Shown: positions 205 to 23,070 of the stretch, piece by piece
Layout: every line of letters starts with the position of its first letter
Position numbering within the stretch: position 1 is the stretch's first letter
Assembly (NCBI GenBank): GCA_016938175.1
Contig: JAFGVE010000039.1
Location: 1-64,000 of the forward strand
Length of the DNA stretch: 64,000 bases
Source of the DNA: Campylobacterales bacterium
GTDB lineage: Bacteria > Campylobacterota > Campylobacteria > Campylobacterales > Sulfurimonadaceae
Direction: 5' to 3'
Position numbers and translations under genes: made by a program
The notes under the pieces: model-generated
The model's input: only the letters and a program-made list of their open reading frames with translations
Database searches by the model: none
Told to the model about the DNA's origin: nothing

Positions 205-233
205 TGTAATCAAACTGTCACTTTTCTGTAACC
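205..233 (+). promoter_or_regulatory. Putative Pho box (three half-sites) upstream of the TonB operon
   Basis: TGTAATC-AAAC-TGTCACT-TTTC-TGTAACC, strict 11-bp period; matches seven other sites in the window. Confidence 0.7.
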
Positions 234-292
234 CAACTAAAACCTCTATCCGTTATTCTTCCACAAATAATCCATACTAGGACGGAGATACA

Positions 293-1069
293 ATGATTTT
301 CAATCACAAAAAGATTATCCATTCGCTTGCTTTATCGGCTCTACTATTTGGTTCGGGAGCATCAGCTGCTACAACAAACGACAAACTCGTAAACTCTATT
401 GTTGAGTTACGTGGGGAAGTTGAGAGACTCTATACAGACATCAAAGAGAACAAAGAGCGTTACAACTCTGAGATGAAATCACTCTCAATGCAAATCACTG
501 ATTCAGAAGCACAAATCAACAGAGAAACAACAGCTATGAAACTAGCGCAGACTGAACTTGAAAAAGTGAAGAAAAAAATTCAAGAGACATCTTCTGGAAA
601 TGAAGAAATCAAGCCTCTTGTACTCAATGCAATTGATCTACTTGAAGTAACTATCAAAGAAGGGATGCCTTTTATGGTTGAAGCAAGAGTTGCTGATTTA
701 GAAAAAATCAAATCAGACCTAAACGAAGGTTTAATTACAAATGAAAAAGCTCTTTCACTTGCATGGGTCTCTTATGACGACGCATTACGTGTTACAAAAG
801 AGATTGGTCTGTTTAAACAACAAATAGAGTTTAAAGGTAAAAGTGTTCTTGCTCAAGTTGCAAAACTTGGTTCAGTTGCTATGTTCTTCTCTACTCCGTC
901 TAATGAGGTAGGATTTGTGACAAAAGAGGCTGATGGATATACATATAAACACATTACAAACCCTGAAGATGTGAAAAAAATTGTTGCTCTTTTCGATGCA
1001 CTCCAAAAACAGATTCGTACAGGATACTTTGAACTTCCAAATGCTTTAGTTTTACAAGGAGCTAACTAA
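293..1069 (+). CDS. DUF3450-like periplasmic coiled-coil protein of a TonB2-type system
   Basis: Signal peptide, coiled-coil N-terminal half, first gene of ExbB/ExbD/TonB operon. Confidence 0.7.
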   Translation: MIFNHKKIIHSLALSALLFGSGASAATTNDKLVNSIVELRGEVERLYTDIKENKERYNSEMKSLSMQITDSEAQINRETTAMKLAQTELEKVKKKIQETSSGNEEIKPLVLNAIDLLEVTIKEGMPFMVEARVADLEKIKSDLNEGLITNEKALSLAWVSYDDALRVTKEIGLFKQQIEFKGKSVLAQVAKLGSVAMFFSTPSNEVGFVTKEADGYTYKHITNPEDVKKIVALFDALQKQIRTGYFELPNALVLQGAN

Positions 1070-2376
1070 TGAAACTTTTTACACTCGTACTATTTTTTGC
1101 ACTTACAACACTCGGTGCGGATGAACTCTCTGATGCTTACCAAAAAGAATACACTTTCTTAAAAGCACAAAAAAGTGAACTTACGTCTCGTCTAAAAAGT
1201 GAAGATACTTTTCACCAAAAAGAGCTTAAAAAAGCTGAAACTAAAGTACAAGAGTTACAAAACAGACTTGTTGCATTAACGCAAAAAAACCAAACACTTA
1301 ACACGCAAATTGAAAAGTCAAATCAAATGCTAAGTGATAAAACATCTAATAAAGAGATTACAGCAAACGTAATTATCCAAGCAAAATCACTTTTAGGTGA
1401 ACATGGGGTAACTGTTAATGACGCAAAAGATGCTGATTCGGTAGCTGTGATGAATAAAGCGTTCAATGACGCAGCAAGTCTTTACAAAAAGCTCTCATCA
1501 GTTCAAAAAACAGATGGAAAATTTTACCTTGTTGATGGAACAACTGCACAAGGCGAAGTAATCAAAATAGGAAATGTTGCGGCATATGGTATAGCATCAA
1601 ATGGTGCTGGTGCACTTGCTCCTGCAGGTAACGGTGAATACAAACTTTGGAATCAAGATACATCTGCTCAAGCACAAGCTTTCGCAGCAGGTAAAACTAC
1701 AAAAGATTTACAAATATTTGTATATGAAAACCTTGATAAAGATGTTGAATATGTAAAAGAGAAAACTCTTGAAGAGACTTTAGAGGGTGGTGGAACAATC
1801 GGTTACATTATCTTAGGTCTTGGTGCGCTTGGTTTATTACTTATAGCAATCAGAGTTGTACTTCTTTCACAGTCTGGTTCTAATGTAAAAGAGATTAGCT
1901 CTTTGGTTATAGGAAAAGTTGAAGCTGGTAAAGCAGAAGAGGCTTTGGAGGCTATCAAGTCTTACAAAGGTGCTACTGCTCGTGTTATCAAAGCGACACT
2001 CAGAAACATTCATAAAGACAGAGACCACATTGAGGACATCGTAACAGAGAACATTCTTAATGAAAGTTCAAATATAGACAGATTTGGAAGTTTTGTACTT
2101 GTACTTGCGGCGGTTGCACCACTTCTTGGTCTTTTAGGAACTGTAACGGGTATGATTGCTACATTTGACATCATTACAACTCACGGAACGGGTGATCCTA
2201 AACTACTTTCAGGTGGTATCTCTGAAGCACTAGTTACTACAATGCTTGGTCTTGTTGTAGCAATTCCTCTGCTTCTTTTAGGAAACCTCTTAAGTGGATG
2301 GGCACAAAACATTAAAGACTCAATGGAACAATCAGCACTCCATATTGTTAACATTTTTGAAACTAACAGAGCATAA
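1069..2376 (+). CDS. TtpC-like MotA/TolQ/ExbB proton channel protein with periplasmic N-terminal extension
   Basis: C-terminal LVLAAVAPLLGLLGTVTGMIATFDIIT...GGISEALVTTMLGLVVAIPLLL is the ExbB/TolQ signature; N-terminal coiled coil. Confidence 0.85.
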   Translation: MKLFTLVLFFALTTLGADELSDAYQKEYTFLKAQKSELTSRLKSEDTFHQKELKKAETKVQELQNRLVALTQKNQTLNTQIEKSNQMLSDKTSNKEITANVIIQAKSLLGEHGVTVNDAKDADSVAVMNKAFNDAASLYKKLSSVQKTDGKFYLVDGTTAQGEVIKIGNVAAYGIASNGAGALAPAGNGEYKLWNQDTSAQAQAFAAGKTTKDLQIFVYENLDKDVEYVKEKTLEETLEGGGTIGYIILGLGALGLLLIAIRVVLLSQSGSNVKEISSLVIGKVEAGKAEEALEAIKSYKGATARVIKATLRNIHKDRDHIEDIVTENILNESSNIDRFGSFVLVLAAVAPLLGLLGTVTGMIATFDIITTHGTGDPKLLSGGISEALVTTMLGLVVAIPLLLLGNLLSGWAQNIKDSMEQSALHIVNIFETNRA

Positions 2377-2378
2377 AC

Positions 2379-2993
2379 ATGGATGCATTACTAAACTACT
2401 GGAGTGAGTTCTTACACTTTATGAACTCTGGTGGTGTCATTATGTGGGTACTGTTTGCACTCAACCTGATGCTCTGGTATGGACTCGGGTATAGATACCT
2501 CACACTCAAACGTGGTACAAAAGGAAATATTCGCCGTCTTATAGAAAAACACGAAGAACGTGGAAATGCAAAAGTATATGTAGGTCTTCTTGACTACGCA
2601 GTTGCAGATGCACTTACAGCAGCGCAAAAAGCAGAGGCAGCAGCTCTTAAACCAAGAGAGTTTATCTATGATGCACTCTTTCCTTATGTAAGAGTTGTAA
2701 CAAAGTACTCTGTACTGGTTAAAACCATCGTTATGTTAGCTCCACTTGTTGGACTTCTTGGAACGGTTATCGGAATGATAGAGACCTTTGATGCTCTGCA
2801 GTCCAGCTCTATGTTCTCTCAAGGTGATTCAATTGCCGGTGGAATCAGTAAAGCACTATTTACAACTGAGCTTGGTTTGGTTGTAGCAGTTCCAGGTCTT
2901 TTACTTGGACGTATTTTAGATAAAAAAGAGGAGCAGTTTACTCAAGAATTTGAGCAGATTGCTGACATCATCAGTACAAAGGATGCACAATGA
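2379..2993 (+). CDS. exbB: ExbB-type biopolymer transport protein
   Basis: MLAPLVGLLGTVIGMIETFDAL...GGISKALFTTELGLVVAVPGLLLG. Confidence 0.9.
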   Translation: MDALLNYWSEFLHFMNSGGVIMWVLFALNLMLWYGLGYRYLTLKRGTKGNIRRLIEKHEERGNAKVYVGLLDYAVADALTAAQKAEAAALKPREFIYDALFPYVRVVTKYSVLVKTIVMLAPLVGLLGTVIGMIETFDALQSSSMFSQGDSIAGGISKALFTTELGLVVAVPGLLLGRILDKKEEQFTQEFEQIADIISTKDAQ

Positions 2994-3397
2994 GATTTAG
3001 ACAAAAAAGCCAAAATGTTGATACAGTAGATGTATCACCACTTATTGATATGGTCTTTATTTTACTTATATTTTTCATGGTTACAACGACCTTCGTTAAA
3101 GACATGAAGTTAGAGTTAAACCGTCCATCGGCTGCCTCTGCTTCACTTGCCTCGGCAAAAGTACTACGTGTTTATATCGATAACTCTAGTGAAATTTATG
3201 TGGACAACCAACCAATAAAACTTTGGGCACTTCAAAGTAAACTGCGTGACCTTTTAAGAAGCGCTAGCGAAAAATCTGTACTAGTCGTAACAGATAGTAA
3301 TATTCCTGTAAATGTACTTATAGATGTTGTGGACGAATGTAGACAAAGTGGTGCAAAAGATGTAGCCGTATCTACTACAAAAGAGATGGGTCAATAG
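2990..3397 (+). CDS. exbD: ExbD-type biopolymer transport protein
   Basis: VDVSPLIDMVFILLIFFMVTTTF signature; overlaps exbB stop. Confidence 0.9.
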   Translation: MRFRQKSQNVDTVDVSPLIDMVFILLIFFMVTTTFVKDMKLELNRPSAASASLASAKVLRVYIDNSSEIYVDNQPIKLWALQSKLRDLLRSASEKSVLVVTDSNIPVNVLIDVVDECRQSGAKDVAVSTTKEMGQ

Positions 3398-3401
3398 TCA
3401 A

Positions 3402-4037
3402 ATGTCACAGAAACACTACTCCACATCCGGCAGAGGCTTTTTAGCATTTTTAATAATGCTTCTTGGTGGACTGCTTATGGTTATTCTTGTTGTATCTTTT
3501 AACAAAAGTGTTCAAGAAAAAGAGCCAGTTGTCAAAAAAGAGATTCGCCAAATAAAGGCAGAAAAACAACAACAAAAGACAACAAAGCCTAAACCTAAGC
3601 CTAAGCCAAAACCTAAAGCAGCACGTCCAAAGGCACCGCTTCCAAACATGAACTCTCTGCTTGGTGGTGTGAGTATGAATATACCTGAATTTGAGACGCA
3701 AAATATTGCAGGTGATGCGAGCAGACTTCTTGAAGAGATTGCAGATGATGCAGTTATGACAGAAGATACTGTAGACGTTAAACCAAAAGTACAGTCACGT
3801 CCACCTCTTGAATACCCTGCAGAAGCAGCGAAAAATGGTATTAAAGGTTATGTAGTTATCAACATACTCATAGCGAAAGATGGAAGTGTTGAACTTGCCA
3901 AGGTACTTGAATCACAACCAGCAGGTATCTTTGATGAAGCAGCCCTAAATGCGGTAAGAGCATGGCGTTTTAGTCCTGCCCGTTACAAACAAAAGCCTGT
4001 AAAAATGTGGGCAAAACAGAAAATAAGATTTCAGTAG
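3402..4037 (+). CDS. tonB: TonB family energy transducer
   Basis: N-terminal TM, KPKPKPKPK linker, C-terminal PPLEYPAEAAKNGIKGYVVINILIAKDGSV...AWRFSPA. Confidence 0.93.
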   Translation: MSQKHYSTSGRGFLAFLIMLLGGLLMVILVVSFNKSVQEKEPVVKKEIRQIKAEKQQQKTTKPKPKPKPKPKAARPKAPLPNMNSLLGGVSMNIPEFETQNIAGDASRLLEEIADDAVMTEDTVDVKPKVQSRPPLEYPAEAAKNGIKGYVVINILIAKDGSVELAKVLESQPAGIFDEAALNAVRAWRFSPARYKQKPVKMWAKQKIRFQ

Positions 4038-4045
4038 GAGAGACT

Positions 4046-5320
4046 ATGTACAAAAAATTACTATCAACTATAGCTACAGCTTTTTTACTGCATAGTTCTG
4101 TTTTTGCTGCAGATGCAAACATTGACGACTCGGTTGATCATGTTGCACTTGCTACACTTATGATATATGACGCAAACTATAAAAAAGCACAAGAAGAGCT
4201 CTCTTTAGTAAATAGAGAAGCTTCTAATTATGATGCGGCTAACTATTTTACGGTCGTAGGTGTTTTAAACTCGAAGTTAGGAAAAACAGAAGAGGCTATT
4301 AGTGCTTACACAAAAGCGATAGAAGCAACAAAAACAAAACTTTTTGTTGCTCCTAAAACATATACAAAAGAGAAATACCTCTTCTCAATTGCGGGCAGTG
4401 AGGAGACAAAAGAGAAAGCACCACTCTTTGACCCAGAAGCAAAACGTAAAGAGAAGATAGAACAACTCTATATGTACCTTACTCAAGAGTATTACAAACT
4501 AAAAGATTATAAAAACACTGTAGAGTCTTTAGAAAAAGCTGGAGAGCAAGGAGAGAGCCGTGCAGGTCTCTATACGCTTAGAGCAGAGTGCTACTACAAG
4601 CTTAAAGAACATGAGAAGACTTTTGCAGCGCTTAACAAAGGTATAGAAAAGTTCCCAGAAGATGCAACACTTTTAAAACAGAAATTTTACTACTTTGCAG
4701 ATCTTAAACTCTATCAAGCGGCTATTGATTCAGCGAGAGTCTATATGAGCAAGGTTGGCGTTAGTGCACAAGAGTACATCGCTCTTGCACAGATGCTCAT
4801 AGGTGCAAATCAGATTGATTCTGCAATTGTACTCCTTGAAGAGTCACGTTTAAAGTTTCCAAAAGAGCCTTCAATTGGGATACTTCTTGGACATATGTAC
4901 CTCAAAAAAGAGATGAAACACGCAAGTGCTCACCTCTTTGATGAGAGTTCATACTATGACAAAAAGTATCTCAAAGATGCAGTAGAGATGAATCGTCGTG
5001 CAGGAAACAATCAGCACGCACTCTATCTCAACACACAAAACATTGACAAAATAGAGAAGCTGAAACAGAAAATTGCTATCTATTTAAATGCAGGTGAGTT
5101 TAGAAAAATCATTGGTTTGCAAAAAGCGCTTGAACGTTACAAAATGCTTGATGATGAAAACTTACGTTATGCACTAGCGTATGCTTATTACATGTCAGAT
5201 GACTTTGCAAACGCAGAAGCACAACTCAAATACATTACAGATAGCGAGCTTTTTGGTAAAGCAACGGTTATTCGTAAAAACATAGAAAAATGTACAAACA
5301 ACAGCTTGGAGTGTCTATAA
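4046..5320 (+). CDS. TPR-repeat periplasmic protein of the TonB cluster
   Basis: Signal peptide and TPR-like repeats; ATG at 4046 preceded by GTAGGAGAG, preferred over the 4007 start that overlaps tonB. Confidence 0.85.
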   Translation: MYKKLLSTIATAFLLHSSVFAADANIDDSVDHVALATLMIYDANYKKAQEELSLVNREASNYDAANYFTVVGVLNSKLGKTEEAISAYTKAIEATKTKLFVAPKTYTKEKYLFSIAGSEETKEKAPLFDPEAKRKEKIEQLYMYLTQEYYKLKDYKNTVESLEKAGEQGESRAGLYTLRAECYYKLKEHEKTFAALNKGIEKFPEDATLLKQKFYYFADLKLYQAAIDSARVYMSKVGVSAQEYIALAQMLIGANQIDSAIVLLEESRLKFPKEPSIGILLGHMYLKKEMKHASAHLFDESSYYDKKYLKDAVEMNRRAGNNQHALYLNTQNIDKIEKLKQKIAIYLNAGEFRKIIGLQKALERYKMLDDENLRYALAYAYYMSDDFANAEAQLKYITDSELFGKATVIRKNIEKCTNNSLECL

Positions 5321-5321
5321 A

Positions 5322-8300
5322 ATGAAGCATTTACTCAAAACACTAACGCTAATTACCCTATTCTTTTCATTTGCAGTTGCAGATGAAACGGGTTCAGCTT
5401 CAATCTTCTCATTTTTTAATGGTGTTGCTTTAGAGAAAAATGAAGTACTTCTTGATGGAAAATATAGTTACTATACTGACGAAGATGGTAGTGTAGAGCT
5501 TATTTTAGAGACTGGAAAGCACCAAATAGAGATATTTGCCAAAGATGAAAACGGAGCAAATGTCGGTTACGTAAAGAGAACTATAGAGGTTAAAGAGGGT
5601 CGTGATACTCAGGTTATAGCAACATTTAACGAAGGTGGAGCAACACCTCACGTTGAAATAGACACACCACTTGGAGCAGCAGCCGTTGCGACGATAGACC
5701 CACTCAATACGGGTATATTTCACGGTATAGTGCGTACATCTGATAAAGACCTCCCAATTGCTAATGCAAGAGTCTTTGTAAAAGGGACTTCTATAGATGC
5801 AAAAACAGATGAGAACGGTAACTTCTACATTGAGGTACCTGCTGATCAGACTATAAGCCTCTCTATCGTACACTCAGAGTACAGTTCACAAACACTCAAC
5901 GACATTAAAGTTGCAAAAGATGAGACAATCAATCAAGAAATAAAACTCACACCTGCGAGTATGGAACTTGAAGAGTTTGTTGTTCTTGCACCTAAGGTTG
6001 AAGGTTCAATAGCAAGTATTATGGCTGAAGAGAAACAGAGTAATGCCATTACAAACATTGTTGGTTCAGACCAGATGAGTAAAAAAGGTGACTCTACTGC
6101 TGCTGGCGCACTTAGACGTGTAACGGGTGTAACACTTATCGATGGAAAAGATGTCTATGTTCGCGGTCTTGGTGGTCGTTACTCAAATACAGAGTTAAAC
6201 TCCCTTCCACTCCCGTCTCCAGATCCACAAAGTAGAACTGTACCTCTTGATATATTTCCAGCAGCGGTTATCGGTTCAATGAAAGTACAAAAAAGTGCCA
6301 CTGCTGATATTCCAGCAAGTTTTGGTGGTGGATATGTTGATATTCGTACAAAAGACAGTGAAAAAGAGAACTACTTCAAAATCCAAACAGAGATAAAATC
6401 TAACTCATATACTGGAAAACAGGTTAATAACTATGAAGGTAGTAAATCTGACTACCTTGGTAAAGATGATGGGTATAGAGCTATTCCAGCACAAATTTTA
6501 AATGACACGCGAATCGTTGTAGGTTCTCCTGTACCAAGTTTTGATCCAGCAGATAATCAAGCCTATACTACAGCAATCACAAACAGACTCTTTACTACAA
6601 CTAAAGAGGCACTTCCATATGGTGGCAAGGTAACACTTGAAGGTGCATATAATTTAGAACTAGCAGATAAACATAACCTTTCATTCTTTGCTAACTATGC
6701 CTATGGACAAACACATACATACCGTGAAGAAGAGTATTTTAGTTATGACTATAGCCGTGTTACAGATTCACTGGATAAAGAGCCTTCACAGTGGGGAGAT
6801 TTTTATAAAACTGTTGACGAGTATACAAATGCCGGAATCCTAACTGCTCAGTATAACTATGCAGATGTATTTAAACTAAAATATACAAGACTTTACTCGA
6901 AAACATCAGAGTCTGTTACAAAAATTGCAGATGGTATTGCAGGTTCTAGTAATGACTGGAGAATTGTTTACGATTTAAACTGGGAAGAGAGAACTCTTGA
7001 TGTCGATCAGGTGAACGGTGAACTTAAATATGCTATCGCAGATGTAGAAAATCTTTTCTCATTTGCTGGAGAGTATGCCTTAGCCGAGTTAGATCAGCCA
7101 AATAACGTACGTTATACATACATTAGAAACACAACTTTTGACCTTGTTCCATATGGAGACCCTTATTTAGATCGTTACCAACCTGCAAACTTTTTAAATT
7201 TAACATCGACAGATAATATGGAAGCTTGGTACCTGAAAAATAAAACAATGCTCAACATCTTGAGTGAAGAGGATTATTTAGAGGTAGGTTTTAGCGCTAG
7301 TTCAAAAACGAGAGAGTCTCGTTATAACAGATACTTAATGAACCAATCAAGTTCATCAGGACAACTCACTGATGATTTAGACACTATTTATGACAAACAT
7401 ATCAGACAAAACTATGATGGGATTTTTAATCTCTCTATCTCATTTCAACCAGCATATTGGTATGACGCAGAAGTAGAAGAGTTTGCAGAGTATGCGAATC
7501 TACTTCTAAAACCAAGTGAAAATCTGGAAGTTATGGTTGGTGCAAGAAATGTTGATTTTCAACAGACAGTGTATCAATACACTAACAACAACAATATTTT
7601 CAATCCAATTGAAAGAGTACCGGAATCACTCTCTATGAACAATGTCTTACCAAGCCTTGGAGTAAAATATATTTTTGATAAATCAAATCAGCTAAGTTTT
7701 GCTTACTCACAAACATATATAGTTCCTGACTTGAGAGAATTCGCTAGTACAGAGTATTTTCACCCTTATGAAATTGCTACGGTAAAAGGGAATCCAAACC
7801 TTGTCAATACAGATATCTATAGTTATGATTTAAAGTATTCTCACTATTTTAGCGATACTGAAAATCTTAACCTTGGAATTTTTTACAAAAATCTTGACAA
7901 CCCTATCGAAGATACAGTCGATGAAAGAAATGCCTTGCCACTCTACTCTTATGAGAATATGGATAGTGCAACACTCTACGGTATAGAGATTGACGGACGT
8001 AAAAGTTTTGACATTATCCACAAAGATTTAGCGAACTTTTACCTAGCAGGTAACTTCTCTTATACCAAATCTGATGTTTCACTAACAGAAGAGCAGCAAA
8101 CACAGTTTACAAGTAACCATAGAGAATTACAAGGTCTCTCTCCAACCGTAGTAAACGTTTCATTAAGTTATGAGAGTAAGCATACAAACCTTACCCTCTC
8201 TTACAACAAAATGGGAGAGAGAATTCGTAAAGTTGGTATGATTGATTACCTTGATGAGCTACCGGATTACTATGAAGTACCGCCACAAATTCTTGACTTT

Positions 8301-8459: not shown

Positions 8460-8464
8460 TGTAT

Positions 8465-8482
8465 TGTAATCAAAAGGTAATA
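8465..8482 (+). promoter_or_regulatory. Putative Pho box upstream of phoB, with -10 TATAAT at 8492-8497
   Basis: TGTAATC-AAAA-GGTAATA, 9-bp gap, TATAAT. Confidence 0.75.
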
Positions 8483-8520
8483 GTGACTATTTATAATATG
8501 CTTACCAAAAGGAGCCTTGA

Positions 8521-9201
8521 TTGAAACAGCAAATCCTCATTGTTGATGACGATAATGACATCTTAGAACTCTTAGAGTACAACCTCTCTGCTCAAGGTTA
8601 CGACGTACTTGGCTTTTTAAGCACGAAACATGTGCGTAGTGTCCTCTCTGAAGAGAAGATTGACCTCATCATTATGGATAGAAATCTTCCTGATATTGAA
8701 GGGAGTTACTATGTAGAGATGTTACGTTCTAAGAATGTAAACACTCCTGTTATCATGCTCTCTGCAAAAGATTCTCAAGAGGACATCAAAGAGGGACTGA
8801 TTAAGGGGGCTGATGATTACATCACAAAACCTTTTGATATTGAAGAGCTTATTCTTCGTGTAAAAGCAGTACTCAAACGCTCAAGTTCAGAATCCAAAGA
8901 GCTTGCAGAAGATATGGAGTACAAAGACATGAAGCTCGACTTAAATATGCATCGTGTCATTATAGATGAGAATGAAATTGCGCTTACAAATCTTGAAACA
9001 TCTCTCTTGCAAACTTTAGTAGCAAACAAAGGCAAAGTGCTTGACAGAGACTTCTTACTCAAAGCTGTTTGGAAAGATGCAGAAAATATACATCCAAAAA
9101 CAGTAAACGTGGCCATAAAACGTCTGAAAGAAAAAATTGACCCTTTCAAAGAGAAAGAGTATATTAAAACCATTCGTGGTGTTGGTTATCTAGTAGCCTA
9201 A
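8521..9201 (+). CDS. phoB: OmpR/PhoB family response regulator
   Basis: Receiver domain (VDDDNDILELLEYNL...MDRNLPD...KPF) plus winged helix (HPKTVNVAIKRLKEKI...IRGVGYLV); TTG start after AAGGAG; Pho context. Confidence 0.85.
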   Translation: MKQQILIVDDDNDILELLEYNLSAQGYDVLGFLSTKHVRSVLSEEKIDLIIMDRNLPDIEGSYYVEMLRSKNVNTPVIMLSAKDSQEDIKEGLIKGADDYITKPFDIEELILRVKAVLKRSSSESKELAEDMEYKDMKLDLNMHRVIIDENEIALTNLETSLLQTLVANKGKVLDRDFLLKAVWKDAENIHPKTVNVAIKRLKEKIDPFKEKEYIKTIRGVGYLVA

Positions 9202-9203
9202 AC

Positions 9204-9917: not shown

Positions 9918-9974
9918 ATAGCCTCATTTTTTTGCGACATTATAACTGTCATTGGGAAAAGAAATGTTTGAAAA

Positions 9975-9995
9975 TTTGCATAAAATTTATGCAAA
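9975..9995 (-). terminator. Palindrome, possible terminator in porin-GATase intergenic region
   Basis: TTTGCATAAA-A-TTTATGCAAA followed on the minus strand by TTTTC. Confidence 0.35.
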
Positions 9996-10008
9996 AATGC
10001 GAAGGAAT

Positions 10009-10033: not shown

Positions 10034-10051
10034 TGAGGAAAATATATATTT

Positions 10052-11392: not shown

Positions 11393-11437
11393 TTTTTTTC
11401 CTCATTTTTTTAATTCGGTGACATTTTAGTGTCACTT

Positions 11438-11455
11438 GATTACAAAATGATTACA
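11438..11455 (-). promoter_or_regulatory. Putative Pho box for the porin, with -10 TAAAAT at 11428-11423
   Basis: Minus strand TGTAATC-ATTT-TGTAATC, 9-bp gap, TAAAAT. Confidence 0.75.
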
Positions 11456-11473
11456 ATATTTTCTCTTCATATA

Positions 11474-11491
11474 TGTAATCATTTTGTAATA
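11474..11491 (+). promoter_or_regulatory. Putative Pho box for pstS, with -10 TATACT at 11501-11506
   Basis: TGTAATC-ATTT-TGTAATA, 9-bp gap, TATACT. Confidence 0.78.
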
Positions 11492-11536
11492 TTGCTCTTT
11501 TATACTTCTTCATCAAAATCATATAAAGGTTTACAA

Positions 11537-12541
11537 ATGACAAGAGTTATAAAGCTAGCATTAGCGGCATCAGTGCTATTTAGCGGACTAAGTGCAAACG
11601 AGGTAATTAAAGGAAGCGGTGCTTCTTTTCCTTACAGTGTATATCAAAAATGGATAAAAGCATATAATAAAGAGACCGGCATTAAGATTGACTACATCAA
11701 AAAAGGTTCATCAAAAGGTATTAAAGATGCCCAAGCTCGTGCAGTTGACTTTGCAGGAACAGACAAACCACTTTCTCCAAAAGTTTTAAAACAAAATGGT
11801 CTTTACCAATTTCCTGGTGTTGTTGGTGCAATTACAATGGGTTACAATCTTCCAGGAGTTGATTCACTCAAACTGAGTCGTGCAGCAATTGTTGCTATTG
11901 CTGAGGGAAAAGTATCTTACTGGGATGACGCACTGATTACAAAAGAGAACCAAAATGTAAAACTCCCACATAAAAAACTCACGTTTGTACACCGTGCTGA
12001 TGGAAGTGGAACAACATATAACTTTACATACTATCTTTCTAAAGTATCTAAGGAGTGGAGAACAACATACGGTGCGAAAAAAGCACTTACATGGCCAGGT
12101 GACCACCATATTGGCGGAAAAACAAACTCTGGTGTGGCAGCACTTTTAAAACAAACTCCTTACTCTGTTGGTTACATTGACTACGCAGATGCGGCAAATA
12201 ATGAAATCGCAATGGCAGCCGTTGAGAACCGTGATGGCAAATACATAATACCAACACTCAAATCATTTCAAGCGGCTGCGGCAAAAGCCTCTTTAGATGC
12301 TGCTAAAGATTTTTACTCAATTATTGCAGACCCTAAAGGTGCTGACTCTTACCCAATGGTAGCGGCAACTTTCATACTTTTACCGTCTGAAAAACCTGCA
12401 CAAAACAAAGAGGTTGTGAAATTTTACGACTGGTGTTTTAAAGATGGACAAGAGATTGCAAAAAGTCTTGGTTTCGTTCCGCTTCCAGACACACTTACAG
12501 ATAAAATCAGAGCTTACTGGAGCGCTAAAGGCATTCAGTAA
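11537..12541 (+). CDS. pstS: Phosphate ABC transporter substrate-binding protein
   Basis: IKGSGASFPYSVYQKWIKAY, GSSKGIKDAQARAVDFAGTDKPL, HRADGSGTTYNFTYYLS; ATG at 11537 gives a clean signal peptide. Confidence 0.95.
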   Translation: MTRVIKLALAASVLFSGLSANEVIKGSGASFPYSVYQKWIKAYNKETGIKIDYIKKGSSKGIKDAQARAVDFAGTDKPLSPKVLKQNGLYQFPGVVGAITMGYNLPGVDSLKLSRAAIVAIAEGKVSYWDDALITKENQNVKLPHKKLTFVHRADGSGTTYNFTYYLSKVSKEWRTTYGAKKALTWPGDHHIGGKTNSGVAALLKQTPYSVGYIDYADAANNEIAMAAVENRDGKYIIPTLKSFQAAAAKASLDAAKDFYSIIADPKGADSYPMVAATFILLPSEKPAQNKEVVKFYDWCFKDGQEIAKSLGFVPLPDTLTDKIRAYWSAKGIQ

Positions 12542-14071: not shown

Positions 14072-14083
14072 AAGGAAACAAAG

Positions 14084-14584: not shown

Positions 14585-14601
14585 TGAAACTGAAATAGCA
14601 C

Positions 14602-15585: not shown

Positions 15586-16244
15586 AAATACTACTACTTG
15601 AAGATGACGCGATTTTACGCGAAAGCATGACAGAATTTTTAGAAACAAAAAATTTCACTGTAGATTGCTACGATACAAGCGATACGGCATTTGACGCAAT
15701 TTTTTCAGATGAATACGACCTTTTACTCCTTGATGTAAACGTGCCTGGAACTTGGAATGGATTTTCTCTAAGAGAGAATCTCTCTTTAGAAGAGAAGCAC
15801 ATTCCCACGATTTTTGTGACCTCTATGTCAAGTGCTGATGCAATGATTCAAGGTTACGCACATGGTTGTTGCGACTATATTAAAAAACCTTTTGACCTCA
15901 CAGAGCTCTATCTTCGGGTCCAACACGCGCTCAAAGCAAACTGTTTTCAAACAAACGACAACTTTTTAAATCTCTCCAGCGAGTGTAAATTTAACCTCTC
16001 TACTTACGAGTTTATAAATAACAACGAAACAATTCCACTCAGTAAGACCGAGAGTAAAATTTTTATTTTGTTTTTAAAAAATAGAAATAAAGTAGTCACC
16101 TTTGAGATGCTTTATGAGCAAATATGGAATAACAATATAGAAGCCACAAATGCAAGAGTACAGGTAAACAACCTTAGAAGAAAACTCCCAAAAGACGTTA
16201 TTAAAAACGTGTATGGACTTGGATATCGCCTTGATTGTCAATGA
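15582..16244 (+). CDS. OmpR-family response regulator
   Basis: Receiver (LLEDDAILRESM...LLLDVNVPG...KKPFD) and wHTH (TNARVQVNNLRRKL...GLGYRL). Confidence 0.88.
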   Translation: MKILLLEDDAILRESMTEFLETKNFTVDCYDTSDTAFDAIFSDEYDLLLLDVNVPGTWNGFSLRENLSLEEKHIPTIFVTSMSSADAMIQGYAHGCCDYIKKPFDLTELYLRVQHALKANCFQTNDNFLNLSSECKFNLSTYEFINNNETIPLSKTESKIFILFLKNRNKVVTFEMLYEQIWNNNIEATNARVQVNNLRRKLPKDVIKNVYGLGYRLDCQ

Positions 16245-17414
16245 GCAAGAGTTTGTAAAAAAGTACAGTCTGATTTATACCTTTATCGTCTCTATCATAC
16301 TGCTTGCCCCCTTATACATCTATGTAAATCACAACATAAAGTTACATGAGACACGAATGCAAATGGAGCTTAACTCCATACAGTAAACATCATAAATCAG
16401 ATGAAAAACTTTGGCAATCATCCAGATGAAACTTTTATATTTCCCCAGCTTCCTCAGAGCCAATCGGGACTTTACAAAAAAGATTTTTCAATCATCCATA
16501 CACAGCTTACAGACACACTTCCATCTTTTATGACAGGCTATCATGCTCTCAAGAGTTCTCGATACCTTATAACGAAACTCCCTTCTAAAAAGTACTTTTT
16601 TGCCGAGTACCTTGTTACAAAAAAAGAGATTTCCTTTTCGTTTATATTTTTTGAAGCCAGTCTCATAGCATTTGGAATTATCACTCTTATTCTCTTACTA
16701 TCATTTTATTTTTTAAAAAATTTTTCTCGTCCTTTTAAACGTATCAATGAAAAACTAGACGACTTCATCAAAGAGTCCATGCATGAGATAAATACACCTC
16801 TAAGCATCATAAACGTAAACGTTGATCTCTTTGATAGTATTCATGGCAACAATAAATATCTCAAACGTATCAAGTCTGCTACAAAGTCACTGGCCACTAT
16901 ATACAACGATATGGATTACCTTATTAAACAAAACCGTATAGAGTATAAAAGTGAAGTTTTATCTTTAAATGCGTTTTTACAAGAGAGGATAAGCTACTTT
17001 GAACATATTTGCCAACTCAAAGAGATAACCATATCTTTTGACTGTAACATCCTTGTAGAGCTCTACTTCAACCCAACAAAACTACAAAGAATAGTCGATA
17101 ATACCCTATCAAACGCCATCAAGTTCTCAAATAATAACTCTAGTATTCATATAACCTTAGGACACAATGGTGATGATGTGGTTCTGAGTATAAAAGATTT
17201 TGGTCAGGGAATGCAAGATCCTCAAAAAATATTTGATAAATACTACAGAGAGGATGACCAAAAACATGGTTTTGGAATTGGCATGAGCATAGTCAAATCC
17301 ATTGTGAACGAATCAGACATTTCGCTTGAAATAAAATCAAAACATTTAGAGGGAAGTGAATTCATCTATACATTTCATAGTTCTATAGTTCCAAAAATAA
17401 GTAACAAGGTGTAA
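16213..17414 (+). pseudogene. Histidine kinase split by an apparent single-base frameshift near 16374-16386
   Basis: Fragment 16213-16386 (M..VNEQEFVKKYSLIYTFIVSIILLAPLYIYVNHNIKLHETRMQMELNSIQ*) in one frame; remainder with MHEINTPL H-box and HATPase motifs in the next frame, open from 16374. Confidence 0.65.
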
Positions 17415-17464
17415 ATAAATTGTTCTCATAACAGCTACAAAACCTCCTTCTCCAAATCATGTTA

Positions 17465-17482
17465 TGTAACCATTAAGTAATC
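17465..17482 (+). promoter_or_regulatory. Putative Pho box upstream of pstC, with -10 TATAAT at 17492-17497
   Basis: TGTAACC-ATTA-AGTAATC, 9-bp gap, TATAAT. Confidence 0.75.
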
Positions 17483-17527
17483 AAATATAAATATAATTTT
17501 CCAGAATTTTTACACGGACGCAAATAT

Positions 17528-18487
17528 ATGGAAAAAATTTTTCAAAAACTAGCCCTTAGTAGTGCAACCTTGGTTTTTGTAATCTTAATTGGTATTTTCC
17601 TTACACTCTTCAGTGCTGCAAAACCGGCAATAGACGAGTTTGGATTTGACTTTATTACAAACCCTGCATGGAACCAAGAAGTAGAGCTAACGACTGAGAC
17701 AACAATTACAGCTCCCATAAACGATGAAATTGTTGATGAAGATGAGATGATAGAAGATGAAGACGGTGTTCTTTTTGAAGATGAAGAGAGCTCACTTACT
17801 AAGACTGTATATGGTGGACTTGTACCAATAGTTGGAACACTTCTGACAACACTTATAGCACTTGTATTTGCCTTACCGATTGCAATGGGAATTGCAGTCT
17901 TTTTAGCAGAGATGGCACCAAAAAATATCTCTTATATAGTTGGTATAGCAATTGAGCTTTTAGCTGCAATTCCTTCTATCATTTTTGGTATGTGGGGACT
18001 TTACTATTTTGCTCCGATAGTTGCGGATTTAGTTGGTGGGTACCAAGTATCTCTTCTGACAGCGGGACTTGTTCTTGGAGTTATGATTCTTCCCTTTATG
18101 GCAGCGATTACAAGAGATAGTATGAACACAACACCAGGTGTTTTAAAAGAGTCTGCCTATGCACTAGGAGCTACTAAATTTGAAGTTATCAAAGATATTA
18201 TCTTCCCATACTCTAAAACAGGTATTATCGGTTCCATTATTTTAGCACTCGGGCGTGCACTTGGTGAGACTATGGCAGTAGCCTTTCTCATTGGTTCTAT
18301 TTTTGCACTTCCAGAAGCGATTAATGACCCTACTATCTCTATTCCAGTTGCAATGGCAAACAACTTTGGTGAAGCAAGCGGTCTTGGAGAGAGTGCACTC
18401 TTTTACTTAGCACTTATTCTATTTGTGATTAGCTTTGGAGTTATCTCTATAGCGAAGTTTTACTTTTTAAAAAGAGGAGCGAAATAG
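17528..18487 (+). CDS. pstC: Phosphate ABC transporter permease PstC
   Basis: ALGATKFEVIKDIIFPYSKTGIIGSIILALGRALGETMAV; precedes pstA/pstB. Confidence 0.93.
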   Translation: MEKIFQKLALSSATLVFVILIGIFLTLFSAAKPAIDEFGFDFITNPAWNQEVELTTETTITAPINDEIVDEDEMIEDEDGVLFEDEESSLTKTVYGGLVPIVGTLLTTLIALVFALPIAMGIAVFLAEMAPKNISYIVGIAIELLAAIPSIIFGMWGLYYFAPIVADLVGGYQVSLLTAGLVLGVMILPFMAAITRDSMNTTPGVLKESAYALGATKFEVIKDIIFPYSKTGIIGSIILALGRALGETMAVAFLIGSIFALPEAINDPTISIPVAMANNFGEASGLGESALFYLALILFVISFGVISIAKFYFLKRGAK

Positions 18488-19291
18488 ATGAGACTTTTAG
18501 TAAATAAAATATTTTTAGCACTCTCTGCTCTTTCTGCGTTTATAGGATTGGCATTTTTGGCATGGATACTTATAACTCTCTTTTTAAAGGGTCTAGGTTC
18601 ATTTCACTTTTCGCTCTTTTTAAATGACCTCATTAACGGAGGACTAAGAAACCTCATTATCGGGCAGTTTATAATGGCTGGACTTGCTGCACTTATGGGA
18701 ATTCCTATAGGAATGATTGCAGGGATTTATCTTCAAGAGTATGGACGCGGAAAGTACGCATCTTTCATTCGTGATTTAAGCGATATTATGATGTCTGCAC
18801 CCTCTATTGTTATTGGTGCTTTCGTTTATGCAGTTATAGTTGTACCAAGTGGTGGGACAAGCGGCTATGCTGGTGCAATCTCTCTCGCTATCATGATGAT
18901 TCCTGTTGTTATAAATACAACAGACAATATGCTCTCTCTCGTACCTCGCGAGCTTAGAGAAGCAGGTATTGCTCTTGGTGCTTCAAAATACAGAGTTATT
19001 TTAGATATTGTAATAAAAGCGGCAAAAGTAGGAATTATGACTGGTATTTTACTCGCCTTTGCACGTATTATAGGTGAGACAGCACCTCTGCTTTTCACCT
19101 CAGAGACTTCTAACTACTTTACACTCGACTTAACACAGAGTTTTCCATCTCTGACCGTAAGTATTTACGATTTGGCAAATGAACCTGAAGAGCGCAGCCG
19201 TGATTTGGCATGGGCAGCTTCATTCATACTGACAGTTCTGGTTTTACTCATAAACCTCGCTGGTAGATTTATAACAAGACATAAAGATTAA
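18488..19291 (+). CDS. pstA: Phosphate ABC transporter permease PstA
   Basis: [48 protein letters not shown]. Confidence 0.93.
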
Positions 19292-19302
19292 GGAATAAGA
19301 TT

Positions 19303-20085
19303 ATGGCAATTATGGATATTAAAAAATTCTCTTTTACATACCCGGGTGTAGAACATGCTTCACTAAGAAACATTACACTTCCTATTGAGCAAAACAAGAT
19401 TACTGCTCTTATAGGTCCAAGTGGTTGTGGAAAATCAACACTGCTTCGTAGTATGAATCGTATTCACGATGTATATCCTGGAAATAAGTATGATGGAAGA
19501 ATAGAGCTTTTAGACCTTGAAACAGGTAAGATGAACAATATTCTTGAAATATATAAAGAGAATGACCTCATACGCTTACGTCAACAAGTGGGAATGATTT
19601 TTCAAAAACCTACACCATTTCCAATGAGCATTTTTGACAACGTAGCATATGGACTTAAAATTGCCGGTATGAAAAACAAAACAGAGATAGCTGACAGAGT
19701 TGAGCAAGCATTAAAGGATGGTGCTCTCTGGAAAGAGGTACACGACAGACTAAACAAATCTGCCATGGGACTCTCAGGTGGGCAGCAGCAACGTTTATGT
19801 ATCGCACGCGCCGTTGCGGTCAAACCAGAAGTTTTACTTTTTGATGAACCAACTTCAGCACTTGACCCAATCTCTACGGGAGCTATTGAAGAGCTTTTAG
19901 TTGAACTCAAAAAAGATGTCTCAATCGCCATTGTTACACATAATATGCAACAGGCTTCACGTATAAGCGACTACACTGCGTTTATGTATTTGGGTGATTT
20001 AATTGAGTATGATAAAACAGAGAACATCTTCTTAAATCCTGCAGAGAAGCAGACAGAAGACTACATTACAGGCCGTTTTGGTTAA
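19303..20085 (+). CDS. pstB: Phosphate ABC transporter ATP-binding protein PstB
   Basis: [70 protein letters not shown]. Confidence 0.96.
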
Positions 20086-20100
20086 TAAGAGGAGAGAAAT

Positions 20101-20781
20101 ATGATATCGAACTTTCAAACAAGTCTTGAAGAGATAAAAACAAAGGTAATAGATATAGCAAAAGGTTTAGAGGCTGCAAACCAACTCATTCTCTCAGCAC
20201 TTTCAGACTGTGAAACAGAGAAGTTTATTGAAGCCAGAGGCTACATCAAAAACATTAATGCTAAAACGGATGAGATAGACAACCTCATTATCAAAGTACT
20301 TGCACTCTATACACCTGAAGCAAGAGACTTACGCCGTGTAATTGCTTACTTTAAAATCACAAATGAACTTGCTCGTGCCTGTTCAAATACTCGTAGCTTT
20401 ATTCGCGGTTTTACCGATGTATGTAAAGATGTAGATGTAGCAACAATTAGTGAGTATGCGGTTCCTATGCAGACATCTACTGTTGCAGCAATTACTCTGT
20501 GTATCAACATGATTAATTGCGAAGATGAAGATGAGATTCAAGAGATTTATAATGATGTGCTCATTGAAGAGAGTAAGACAGATGATCTTTATGAAATGGT
20601 TGAAAGAAGCCTCTTCTTACAAGCAGATGATTCATTAAATACTGATGCAGGTATTAGAAGTTTTGAAAAGTTTCATAAAATGCTCAGAGCACTTAGAAAA
20701 AGCGGTAAGATAGCTTCACGTGCCATTGCTATGGCTAACCTTCTTGTATATGCAAGAGTGGGCGGAAACTTCCGAACATAA
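20101..20781 (+). CDS. phoU: PhoU-like phosphate signalling protein
   Basis: Position after pstB; helical PhoU-like sequence (DLRRVIAYFKITNELAR). Confidence 0.85.
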   Translation: MISNFQTSLEEIKTKVIDIAKGLEAANQLILSALSDCETEKFIEARGYIKNINAKTDEIDNLIIKVLALYTPEARDLRRVIAYFKITNELARACSNTRSFIRGFTDVCKDVDVATISEYAVPMQTSTVAAITLCINMINCEDEDEIQEIYNDVLIEESKTDDLYEMVERSLFLQADDSLNTDAGIRSFEKFHKMLRALRKSGKIASRAIAMANLLVYARVGGNFRT

Positions 20782-20789
20782 AAGCAAAA

Positions 20790-20811
20790 GGGATTATTTT
20801 GTTATAATCCC
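20790..20811 (+). promoter_or_regulatory. Hairpin/promoter-like element between phoU and phoR
   Basis: GGGATTAT-TTTGTT-ATAATCCC, 8-bp perfect stem embedding TATAAT at 20803-20808. Confidence 0.4.
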
Positions 20812-20843
20812 TACTAAAAGACAGACTCAAGAGGTAGCCTCAG

Positions 20844-22226
20844 ATGCTCAACTTCCAACAGATAATACTCAAAAAATTTTTCTCTCTCTTTCTTGTGCTC
20901 TTTATTATTGTAGGCTCTATAGTCTACTACTGGATGAAAGCTTTTTATATTGAACAGACCAAAAGTTCTTTAGTAAACTCTGTTGAACTTATATCTTTAG
21001 AGCTTGCCCACAGCCCTTACAAACTTGATGACTTTGCACGTAAAGTACACGATAAACTTGGAATTCGCGTCACCTTAATAGATGTAGATGGCAATGTTCT
21101 TGCCGAATCAGACAAAGATAAATCAACTATGGATAATCATAAGTACCGTGATGAAATTGTCGCATCAAATAGAGAGTCGTATGGCTATAAAATACGTTAC
21201 TCAAAAACAATTGAGCAATACTTTTTGTATGTTGCAAAACGCTATGAGGTACAAGGTGAGATACTCTATATTCGCCTCGCCGTACAACTCAAAAGCATAA
21301 ATGAGCAGATTTTCTCACTTGGGCTCAAAGTATTTGGTGTACTTGTACTCTTCTTTATACTCGTTCTCTTCATCACTTATAAGATCAATAAACAGATTCA
21401 AGTTGAAATGCAAAAAATTGTACGTTTCTTAAAAGAGCTTACTAAAAAGAAAAAACCGACATACTTAACCTCAAACTTTTCGCAAGAGTTTTATACAATT
21501 ACCTCTCTGCTCTCAAAAGTTTCACAGATTCTTATCAAAAAAGAGAAACAAAAATCGAAATACACAGCAAAACTTGAAATTTCAAACCAACAAAAAGATG
21601 ACATTATCTCTGCAATCTCACACGAGTTTAAAAACCCTATTGCAGTTATCAACGGCTATTCACAGACACTTCTGGATGATGTAAATATTAACCCAAATAT
21701 TCGTAACAAGTTCTTAGAAAAAATCTTTAAAAATGGCGTGAAGTTAAGTGAACTTATAGACACTCTTCGTCTCTCAATAAAACTTGATAGTGGACAGCAG
21801 TCACTTAACTTTACAACTATAAACCTTTACGAACTTGTCCAAGACAGTGTTGAGAGTGTCAAGATTAATCACCCACATAGAGAAGCAATTATTCAAGGAG
21901 AGCAAAATATAACTATCGAGGCAGATGGAGCACTCTTTGGTGTGGTTATTTCAAACCTCATCGAAAATGCTTTTAAATACTCCGAAGATGAAGTTATTAT
22001 TACTTTTGATAAAAATGGACTAAGCGTTACAGATAGTGGAATCGGAATAAATGCGAAAGATTTGGAAAATATTACAAACAAGTTTTATAGAGTACACACT
22101 AACAGTTGGAATAACTCTTTAGGTCTTGGACTCTTTATCGTTAATAACATTATTCGTTTACACAAGTTTAAGCTCTCTATTAAGAGCGAGGAGAATGAGG
22201 GGTCTACTTTTTCAATCTCTTTCTAA
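20844..22226 (+). CDS. phoR: PhoR-type sensor histidine kinase
   Basis: Two TMs, ISHEFKNPIAVINGYSQTL, N-box NLIENAFKYSED, GLGLFIVNNIIRLH; follows pstCAB-phoU. Confidence 0.85.
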   Translation: MLNFQQIILKKFFSLFLVLFIIVGSIVYYWMKAFYIEQTKSSLVNSVELISLELAHSPYKLDDFARKVHDKLGIRVTLIDVDGNVLAESDKDKSTMDNHKYRDEIVASNRESYGYKIRYSKTIEQYFLYVAKRYEVQGEILYIRLAVQLKSINEQIFSLGLKVFGVLVLFFILVLFITYKINKQIQVEMQKIVRFLKELTKKKKPTYLTSNFSQEFYTITSLLSKVSQILIKKEKQKSKYTAKLEISNQQKDDIISAISHEFKNPIAVINGYSQTLLDDVNINPNIRNKFLEKIFKNGVKLSELIDTLRLSIKLDSGQQSLNFTTINLYELVQDSVESVKINHPHREAIIQGEQNITIEADGALFGVVISNLIENAFKYSEDEVIITFDKNGLSVTDSGIGINAKDLENITNKFYRVHTNSWNNSLGLGLFIVNNIIRLHKFKLSIKSEENEGSTFSISF

Positions 22227-22608
22227 AGAGGTGGTAGTTCTCTTTTTCACAGATATTTTCTATATACTCTATAGGACACTTCGCCACATTAGCCCATGCA
22301 CCTGATGGAAGTCGTACTTCAAGCTTCCCTTTTTCACGTAGTTTTATAATCTTTTTATGAGAGAGTTTTTTCTCTGCAACTGAAAAGTCAACCTTTGTTA
22401 AGTCCACATCCTTTCTATAGTAACAAGTCTGCTTTTTGAAGTTACCCCAACCAGGAATACCATCTTGTGTATATGGAATTTCATCTCCATTTTTAAACTC
22501 TACCATTATTGTATAGTGTGAATCGGGATAGACTGCCACAATTTTTCCCTTACCGAAAATAAGACCATAGACCTTATCACCAACTTTTGCTTCATCAAAA
22601 TATGCCAT
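22204..22608 (-). CDS. Uncharacterised protein with SH3-like N-terminus
   Basis: MAYFDEAKVGDKVYGLIFGKGKIVAVYPDSHYTIMVEFKNGDEI; ATG 22608 after AAGGAG; 3' end overlaps the phoR 3' end. Confidence 0.75.
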   Translation of the reverse strand: MAYFDEAKVGDKVYGLIFGKGKIVAVYPDSHYTIMVEFKNGDEIPYTQDGIPGWGNFKKQTCYYRKDVDLTKVDFSVAEKKLSHKKIIKLREKGKLEVRLPSGAWANVAKCPIEYIENICEKENYHLFRKRLKK

Positions 22609-22648
22609 TAGCACTCCTTATAATATTTATAAAATGCTACTCCCCAAT

Positions 22649-22666
22649 GATTACACGAACATTACA
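22649..22666 (-). promoter_or_regulatory. Putative Pho box for the 22608 gene, with weak -10 TAGCAT at 22639-22634
   Basis: Minus strand TGTAATG-TTCG-TGTAATC, 9-bp gap, TAGCAT. Confidence 0.65.
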
Positions 22667-22691
22667 TAAATGACTGTTTTTTAAGCACTTT

Positions 22692-22709
22692 TGTAATGAG
22701 CGTGTAACA
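22692..22709 (+). promoter_or_regulatory. Putative Pho box for the small ORF at 22752, with -10 TACAAT at 22719-22724
   Basis: TGTAATG-AGCG-TGTAACA, 9-bp gap, TACAAT. Confidence 0.7.
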
Positions 22710-22751
22710 TTTTCGTATTACAATTTTTAAACTTAATTATTGAGTAGGAAA

Positions 22752-22985
22752 ATGAGAAACACAAAAAGCCGTGAATTTGTTATTTCAACTGAGACGCTCT
22801 CTGTAGAGTATGACTATCTGCTTGATGCAAACATGCTGGAGGAGTATGTTTTTGAAGAGCTGGAAATTCCAAAAGAGTGTATAAAATCACTTAACATCTC
22901 TGAAGAGAGCCTTAACATTAAGCTTCTTCCGACGCGAACCTATTTCAACGATGACTGGTATGTAAACCTTCTTCGAGTCTCTTAG
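22752..22985 (+). CDS. Small acidic protein (77 aa) of unknown function
   Basis: ATG 22752 after AGGAAA; MRNTKSREFVISTETLSVEYDYLLDANMLEEYVFEELEIPKE...; own promoter-like region. Confidence 0.65.
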   Translation: MRNTKSREFVISTETLSVEYDYLLDANMLEEYVFEELEIPKECIKSLNISEESLNIKLLPTRTYFNDDWYVNLLRVS

Positions 22986-23008
22986 ACTGACACCAAAAAG
23001 ACCCCAAT

Positions 23009-23026
23009 TGTAATCTTCGGGTAACC
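23009..23026 (+). promoter_or_regulatory. Putative Pho box for the acyltransferase gene, with -10 TATACT at 23036-23041
   Basis: TGTAATC-TTCG-GGTAACC, 9-bp gap, TATACT. Confidence 0.75.
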
Positions 23027-23070
23027 TCTCTAAACTATACTTTTTTTCATTTTTATTTCGAGGTTTGATA

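What the first reader, a model, noticed from the sequence alone, without database searches (positions are those of the whole stretch)
205..23041. Eight copies of a 7-4-7 direct-repeat motif (TGTAAYC-N4-TGTAAYn), seven with an invariant 9-bp gap to a -10-like hexamer: a readable Pho regulon
Seen directly: 205-233 (three half-sites), 8465-8482, 11438-11455 (minus), 11474-11491, 17465-17482, 22649-22666 (minus), 22692-22709, 23009-23026. The -10-like hexamers exactly 9 bp downstream are TATAAT (8492), TAAAAT (11428-11423), TATACT (11501), TATAAT (17492), TAGCAT (22639-22634), TACAAT (22719) and TATACT (23036). The 11-bp-period repeat replacing the -35 is the known PhoB promoter geometry. The half-site here differs from the E. 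coli CTGTCAT consensus, so this may define a Campylobacterota-specific Pho box. Members would be the TonB operon, phoB, the porin, pstS, pstCAB-phoU, two unknown genes and an OlsF-type gene.
Basis: partly seen in the sequence, partly recalled or inferred. Interest (0 to 1): 0.82.

Follow-up and report, generated by a model that had tools for sequence, protein, structure and literature searches.

The report
Phosphate-starvation promoters in a Sulfurimonas-like genome
Eight DNA switches that most likely turn genes on when phosphate runs out can be read directly in a sulfur bacterium's genome; they use E. coli's layout with slightly different lettering, and they tie a phosphorus-free membrane lipid enzyme and a conserved unknown gene to phosphate starvation.

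Summary
Seven boxes TGTAAYN-N4-NGTAAYN, each exactly 9 bp from TANNNT, stand at the stated places; dinucleotide shuffles give none. The eighth (TonB operon) also fits once a degenerate fourth half-site at 238-244 is read, giving 9 bp to TATTCT (254-259). In 60 genomes of the genus the box plus -10 occurs 176 times against 7 for the reversed pattern. Half-site period (11 bp: 112 of 116) and gap (9 bp: 111 of 131) are nearly fixed. In 60 related loci boxes precede pstS (37/37), pstC (36/44) and the porin (19/21), not pstA/pstB/phoU/phoR (3/150). Loci picked by protein alone also carry it: olsF 24/27, a 134-aa unknown protein 19/30 (reversed 0). This is a PhoB-type Pho regulon with the geometry of E. 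coli phoA, phoB and pstS. "Campylobacterota-specific" is too strong: E. coli PhoB binds some TGTAAY sites, WalR uses TGTWAH, and within the order the box is at background in two large families; Campylobacter-like genomes carry TGTWTCC half-sites in the same geometry. New: an almost obligate TGTAAYC box across several families, matching recognition-helix changes, and predicted Pho control of OlsF and a conserved unknown protein. Binding and Pi response are untested.

The parts
205..259 (+). Pho-box array of the DUF3450-ExbB/ExbD-TonB-TPR-TonB-dependent receptor operon (293-8459): half-sites at 205, 216, 227 and a degenerate 238-244, 11-bp period; 9 bp; -10 TATTCT 254-259
   Evidence: orthologous promoters L171, L173, L174, L177 keep the degenerate last half-site and the 9-bp gap
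8465..8497 (+). Pho box 8465-8482 and -10 TATAAT 8492-8497, upstream of phoB (autoregulation)
   Evidence: phoB orthologs in L051, L053 and L059 also score 18-21
8521..9201 (+). phoB: OmpR/PhoB-family response regulator, TonB-operon-linked type
   Evidence: Response_reg + Trans_reg_C; best model TIGR02154 PhoB 182.8 bits (cut-off 296.2)
11423..11455 (-). Pho box 11455-11438 and -10 TAAAAT 11428-11423, upstream of the porin gene 11392-10052
   Evidence: 19 of 21 relatives' porin genes have a box
11474..11506 (+). Pho box 11474-11491 and -10 TATACT 11501-11506, upstream of pstS (likely ATG 11537)
   Evidence: 37 of 37 relatives
11537..12541 (+). pstS, periplasmic phosphate-binding protein
   Evidence: PF12849; start read from the sequence
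17465..17497 (+). Pho box 17465-17482 and -10 TATAAT 17492-17497, upstream of pstCAB-phoU-phoR
   Evidence: 36 of 44 relatives
17528..22226 (+). pstC, pstA, pstB, phoU, phoR
   Evidence: pstC, pstA and pstB above NCBIfam cut-offs; phoU and phoR best-matching but below; PF01895 for phoU
22634..22666 (-). Pho box 22666-22649 and -10 TAGCAT 22639-22634, upstream of a conserved 134-aa unknown gene (22608-22204)
   Evidence: 19 of 30 orthologs chosen by protein have a box at 51-79 bp
22204..22608 (-). 134-aa conserved protein of unknown function, in 39 of 60 genomes of the genus, mostly 58-78% identical
   Evidence: no Pfam or NCBIfam match
22692..22724 (+). Pho box 22692-22709 and -10 TACAAT 22719-22724, upstream of a small gene
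   Evidence: boxes also precede its relatives in L053, L078 and L186
22752..22985 (+). 77-aa small protein of unknown function linked to olsF
   Evidence: no family match
23009..23041 (+). Pho box 23009-23026 and -10 TATACT 23036-23041, upstream of olsF
   Evidence: 24 of 27 olsF loci chosen by protein
23071..24783 (+). olsF, bifunctional ornithine lipid synthase
   Evidence: NF052615 802.9 bits, cut-off 620

Best explanation
The eight sites are activator boxes of a PhoB-type phosphate-starvation regulon. When phosphate is low, PhoR (20844-22226) phosphorylates the PhoB at 8521-9201. Two PhoB DNA-binding domains bind head-to-tail to the 11-bp-spaced TGTAAYC repeats, which occupy the place of the -35 element, and recruit sigma70 RNA polymerase to the -10 that starts exactly 9 bp downstream. 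This switches on pstS, pstCAB-phoU-phoR, a porin, a TonB-dependent uptake operon, phoB itself, olsF (phosphorus-free ornithine lipids) and two unknown genes. Shown here: the motif, its geometry, its gene specificity and its conservation. Inferred from the PhoB family: phosphorylation, binding, activation and the phosphate signal.
For: Seven exact 33-base sites, 0 in shuffles. 176 against 7 reversed-control hits in 60 genomes of the genus. 112 of 116 at the 11-bp period, 111 of 131 at a 9-bp gap. Boxes before pstS 37/37, pstC 36/44, porin 19/21, but pstA, pstB, phoU and phoR 3/150. olsF 24/27 and the 134-aa gene 19/30 when loci were chosen by protein, 0 reversed. E. coli phoA, phoB and pstS show the same 9-bp gap. 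No sigma70 -35/-10 pair of the consensus scan ends at any of these -10s. PhoB, PhoR, PhoU and Pst genes are in one cluster. The E. coli-type TGTCAY pattern is at background in the genus, 7 against 4.
Against: No binding or expression data. PhoB, PhoR and PhoU are the best name matches but lie below the NCBIfam equivalog cut-offs. A second PhoB paralog (55% identical, contig C28) with a nearly identical recognition helix could bind the same box. The loci behind the per-gene table were found through the pattern, which inflates it; the olsF and 134-aa sets were not. About a third of the 134-aa orthologs and three olsF loci lack a good box.
Confidence: 0.92

Rival explanations
1. The boxes are real OmpR/PhoB-family operators, but the main user in this genome is another response regulator: the PhoB paralog on contig C28 (55% identical) or the two-component pair at 14602-17414.
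For: The C28 paralog has the helix YKTVNVAINRLKEKIDP, close to PhoB's PKTVNVAIKRLKEKIDP. WalR-type regulators use the same half-site (PMC4168254).
Against: The C28 gene lies beside VWA-domain and surface-protein genes, without phosphate genes or a box of its own in the fetched stretch. In relatives the phosphate genes sit with a PhoB and PhoR. The regulator at 15582 is only 26% identical with a different helix.
Confidence: 0.06
2. The sites are ordinary AT-rich sigma70 promoters whose repeats are chance.
For: The window is 63% AT, and the -10s by themselves look like sigma70 promoters.
Against: 0 matches in shuffles, 176 against 7 controls, near-fixed spacing, and no -35 at the right distance.
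Confidence: 0.01
3. Some of the eight boxes (the 77-aa gene, the 134-aa gene, the TonB operon) are bound but are not functional promoters, like the intragenic PhoB sites of E. coli.
For: E. coli has many inert PhoB sites (PMC10294691). The TonB box has a degenerate last half-site, and the 134-aa box is not conserved in about a third of orthologs.
Against: All are intergenic, 58-66 bp before a start codon, with a -10 at the right distance. In L186 olsF, the 77-aa and the 134-aa gene each keep a box-like sequence in a different order.
Confidence: 0.2

Closest known systems
E. coli PhoB / Pho box (CTGTCAT-N4-CTGTCAT)
   Same: Two 7-base direct repeats, 11-bp period, replacing the -35; 9 bp to the -10 in phoA, phoB and pstS; same core genes; TGTAAY also occurs among E. 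coli PhoB sites.
   Different: Fourth half-site base is A, not C, almost without exception (TGTCAY version 7 hits against 4 controls in 60 genomes); seventh base C in 86% and 65% of the two half-sites; recognition helix KTVNVAIKRLKEK instead of RTVDVHIRRLRKA; regulon predicted to include olsF and two unknown genes.
Campylobacter jejuni PhosR Pho box (GTTTCNAAAANGTTTC, from memory of Wosten et al. 2006)
   Same: Same phylum, same 11-bp period. In Campylobacter-like genomes the box TGTATCCAAAATGTTTCC is also 9 bp from TAAATT (L121-L123).
   Different: Half-site TGTWTCC rather than TGTAAYC; helix KTINTAILRLKQK.
WalR/VicR box of Firmicutes (TGTWAH-N5-TGTWAH)
   Same: Practically the same half-site and period (PMC4168254).
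   Different: Different regulon (cell wall) and lineage; no fixed -10 distance is part of that definition.
PhoB-controlled olsF of Vibrio cholerae (VC0489)
   Same: OlsF made under phosphate limitation under PhoB control (PMC12186959).
   Different: Here the box has the TGTAAY type; Psychromonas olsF has TGTCAT repeats upstream (L192).

Membership tests
PhoB Pho box | Two 7-base direct repeats spaced by 4 (11-bp period) | tested here: met
   (112 of 116 at this period when spacers of 0-16 were allowed)
PhoB Pho box | Box replaces the -35 at a fixed distance from the -10 | tested here: met
PhoB Pho box | E. coli consensus half-site CTGTCAT | tested here: not met
   A instead of C at the variable position; C version at background. 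This lowers 'it is an E. coli-type Pho box', not 'it is a Pho box': the consensus is known to vary between species (PMC4415409), and E. coli PhoB also binds TGTAAY sites
Pho regulon | Boxes upstream of pst and other phosphate genes rather than genes at large | tested here: met
Pho regulon | Induction by phosphate starvation through PhoR-PhoB | not testable with these tools
   needs expression data and mutants
PhoB (TIGR02154 equivalog) | Score above the curated cut-off | tested here: not met
   182.8 against 296.2 bits, though PhoB is the best model; named here as PhoB-type by context and box
PhoB | Receiver plus winged-helix DNA-binding domain | tested here: met
PhoB | Binds the box | not testable with these tools
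   EMSA or DAP-seq needed
OlsF (NF052615) | Score above the curated cut-off | tested here: met
   802.9 against 620 bits
C. jejuni-type PhosR box | GTTTC half-sites | tested here: not met
   window half-sites are TGTAAY; TGTWTCC seen only in Campylobacter-like loci L121-L123

The most novel reading that the evidence does not exclude
Within one bacterial order the PhoB-type regulator and its box changed together while the promoter geometry stayed fixed: TGTAAYC with helix KTVNVAIKRLK in Sulfurimonas-like and related lineages, TGTWTCC with helix KTINTAILRLK in Campylobacter-like genomes, against TGTCAT with RTVDVHIRRLR in E. coli. This would give a natural series for reading the DNA-recognition code of OmpR/PhoB regulators, and ornithine-lipid synthesis in Sulfurimonas would be a phosphate-starvation response.
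Probability: 0.4. Interest if true: 0.62.

Novelty: new variant of a known kind. Interest (0 to 1): 0.5.

Why it matters
It gives a usable, almost degeneracy-free Pho box for a large, ecologically important group of sulfur oxidisers, for which no Pho-box description turned up in the open papers searched. It makes a concrete prediction: ornithine lipids, reported at 40% of the lipids of nitrate-grown Sulfurimonas gotlandica (PMC9789136), are under phosphate control through OlsF. It also gives a conserved unknown 134-aa protein a likely physiological context, and offers paired regulator and box variants to test how OmpR/PhoB helices choose bases.

Tried and rejected
An order-wide box was tested and rejected (two large families at background). 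The half-site at 184 was rejected as part of the TonB array because it is 21, not 22, bp from 205. The place at 35695 (-) was rejected as intragenic. Structure prediction of the 134-aa and 77-aa proteins gave mean pLDDT 55.5 and 58.7, too low for a fold search. Pfam and NCBIfam gave nothing significant for either. The Wosten 2006 paper is not in the held library, so its consensus is from memory; the Campylobacter-type box was read independently from L121-L123. The upstream region of PhoR-linked PhoB genes carries no box, as expected inside an operon.
Full report
**Check of the observation.** The eight sites were read from the sequence. Seven match TGTAAYN-N4-NGTAAYN followed by exactly 9 bp and TANNNT. 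The 33-base pattern finds these seven and nothing else in 64 kb; 100 dinucleotide-preserving shuffles give none. The bare box gives the same seven against a mean of 0.22. In the whole genome (2.26 Mb, 44 contigs) the bare box has 12 matches, 7 in this 15-kb stretch, against 4 for the reversed pattern; with the -10 it has 9 against 0. A weight matrix trained on the seven scores them 22.8-26.0, leave-one-out 17.8-24.5; the next window place is 17.1 and lies inside a gene at 35695.

**The eighth site.** Continuing the 11-bp period gives a degenerate fourth half-site TAAAACC at 238-244, then TCTATCCGT (9 bp), then TATTCT at 254-259. Orthologous operons show the same degenerate last half-site: TGTAACCATACTAAAACC+9+TATTCT (L171), TGTAACTCTTTTAAAACC+9+TATCAT (L173), TGTAATCCTTCTAAAACC+9+TATCAT (L174). 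So all eight have the geometry. Nine of the 15 other DUF3450 loci, chosen by protein, score at least 13; the reversed sequence never exceeds 8.3.

**Genes.** TonB operon: DUF3450, ExbB-type, ExbB, ExbD, TonB, TPR and TonB-dependent receptor. phoB 8521-9201; porin 10052-11392 (-), which only weakly matches porin_ExtI; pstS from ATG 11537; pstC, pstA and pstB above their curated cut-offs; phoU and phoR best-named but below cut-offs; olsF NF052615 at 802.9 bits. The 134-aa and 77-aa proteins match no Pfam or NCBIfam family. The nearest named relatives of the olsF gene are Sulfurimonas.

**Conservation and specificity.** In 60 genomes of the genus the 33-base pattern has 176 matches against 7 for the reversed pattern, and 57 genomes have at least one (sums by hand from the table). 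When the gap to TATAMT was left free (2-17 bp counted from the end of the 18-base box), 111 of 131 matches have 9 bp and 9 have 10 bp. When the half-site spacer may be 0-16, 112 of 116 have the 11-bp period. Sixty loci were annotated against the window proteins. Boxes scoring at least 15 precede pstS in 37 of 37, pstC in 36 of 44 and the porin in 19 of 21, but pstA, pstB, phoU and phoR together in only 3 of 150. These loci had been found through the pattern, so sets chosen by protein search were made as well. olsF: 24 of 27 loci with at least 47% identity (the window among them) score at least 13 within 300 bp, reversed sequence 0 of 27, while three distant paralogs (40-42%) have none. The 134-aa protein, scored with its own window site left out of the matrix: 19 of 30, reversed 0 of 30. 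In L186 (Sulfurimonas sp. S011_35) olsF, the 77-aa gene and the 134-aa gene occur in a new order, each behind its own box-like sequence.

**Mechanism.** E. coli phoA, phoB and pstS, read from MG1655, show box + 9 bp + TATAGT, CATAAT and TATAAC, so the geometry is the canonical one. The consensus scan finds no -35/-10 pair ending at any of these -10s. The likely chain, from the PhoB family (PMC4415409), is PhoR to PhoB~P, head-to-tail binding to the repeats, contact with sigma70 and activation. None of these steps was tested here.

**How far it differs from known boxes.** The E. coli-type TGTCAY pattern is at background in the genus, 7 against 4. But 7 of 39 E. coli ChIP sites that could be read have A in both half-sites, such as mglB TGTAACCCGTATGTAACA and yibT TGTAATAGTTCTGTAACG (PMC10294691), and WalR/VicR uses TGTWAH-N5-TGTWAH (PMC4168254). 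The half-site is therefore a fixed preference within the family's range, not a new word. In the phylum scan, which returned only the window's own order (298 genomes), families f1, f7 and f10 show 94 against 4, 72 against 5 and 49 against 3; f3 and f2 show 4 against 5 and 14 against 17 (sums by hand). Three Campylobacter-like genomes have TGTATCCAAAATGTTTCC, 9 bp, TAAATT between a phosphate-binding-protein-like gene and a PhoB-like gene (L121-L123), which fits the GTTTC box remembered for C. jejuni PhosR. The recognition helices differ in step: RTVDVHIRRLRKA in E. coli, KTVNVAIKRLKEK here, KTINTAILRLKQK in the Campylobacter-like genomes. That is correlation only.

**Which regulator.** The window's PhoB is linked to the TonB operon; in many relatives a different PhoB type sits between phoU and phoR. 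This genome has one further close PhoB paralog, 55% identical, on contig C28 beside VWA-domain and surface-protein genes. The window PhoB, with a box of its own and inside the cluster, is the best candidate.

**Literature.** No paper found in the held open library describes a Pho box in non-Campylobacter Campylobacterota; subscription papers were not searchable. Sulfurimonas gotlandica grown on nitrate had 40% ornithine lipids, and two relatives almost none (PMC9789136). PhoB control of olsF is known in Vibrio cholerae (PMC12186959).

**Verdict.** A real, well-conserved PhoB-type regulon with a lineage-specific half-site preference. The likely new content is the near-obligate box, OlsF and the 134-aa gene as members, and the regulator-box series within the order.

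Noticed in passing
relatives L044-L100; window 22649-22709 and 11438-11491: Divergent back-to-back boxes look phased: spacer 13-15 bp in 12 of 19 pairs, and most others differ by about multiples of 11 (4, 24, 25, 37, 38). Window pair 22666/22692 (25) fits, 11455/11474 (18) does not. Homologous promoters are counted more than once.
   Followed up: partly
window 22752-22985; loci L143-L166: Two apparently unrelated small proteins sit directly upstream of olsF in different clades, in relatives overlapping or abutting its start: ~76 aa ending RYFNEDWYVNxQRIA and ~60 aa with DEWDYIEE...IYMVA. Neither has a family match.
   Followed up: partly
window 12698-17414: About 5 kb (outer-membrane-like protein, DsrE-like protein, sensor, response regulator, histidine kinase) lies between pstS and pstC, which are neighbours in most close relatives.
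   Followed up: no
G000 contig C22:44782-44814 (L003, L139): A further full box + 9 bp + TATAAT outside the window, 41 bp before a thioredoxin-fold-like gene followed by an RND/MMPL-like permease gene (named by eye); a regulon candidate.
   Followed up: partly
G000 contig C28 (L133, L138): Second PhoB paralog, 55% identical, with a nearly identical recognition helix, beside VWA and large repeat surface proteins.
   Followed up: partly
L049, L071, L084: Boxes before genes that by eye look like a chemotaxis receptor, a pyruvate kinase, a polyamine-type binding protein and an LTA-synthase-like sulfatase; possible extra regulon members in relatives.
   Followed up: no
loci L167-L169: A more distant OlsF paralog (40-42%) in some genomes has no Pho box, which recalls V. 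cholerae, where only one of two OlsF proteins serves at low phosphate.
   Followed up: no
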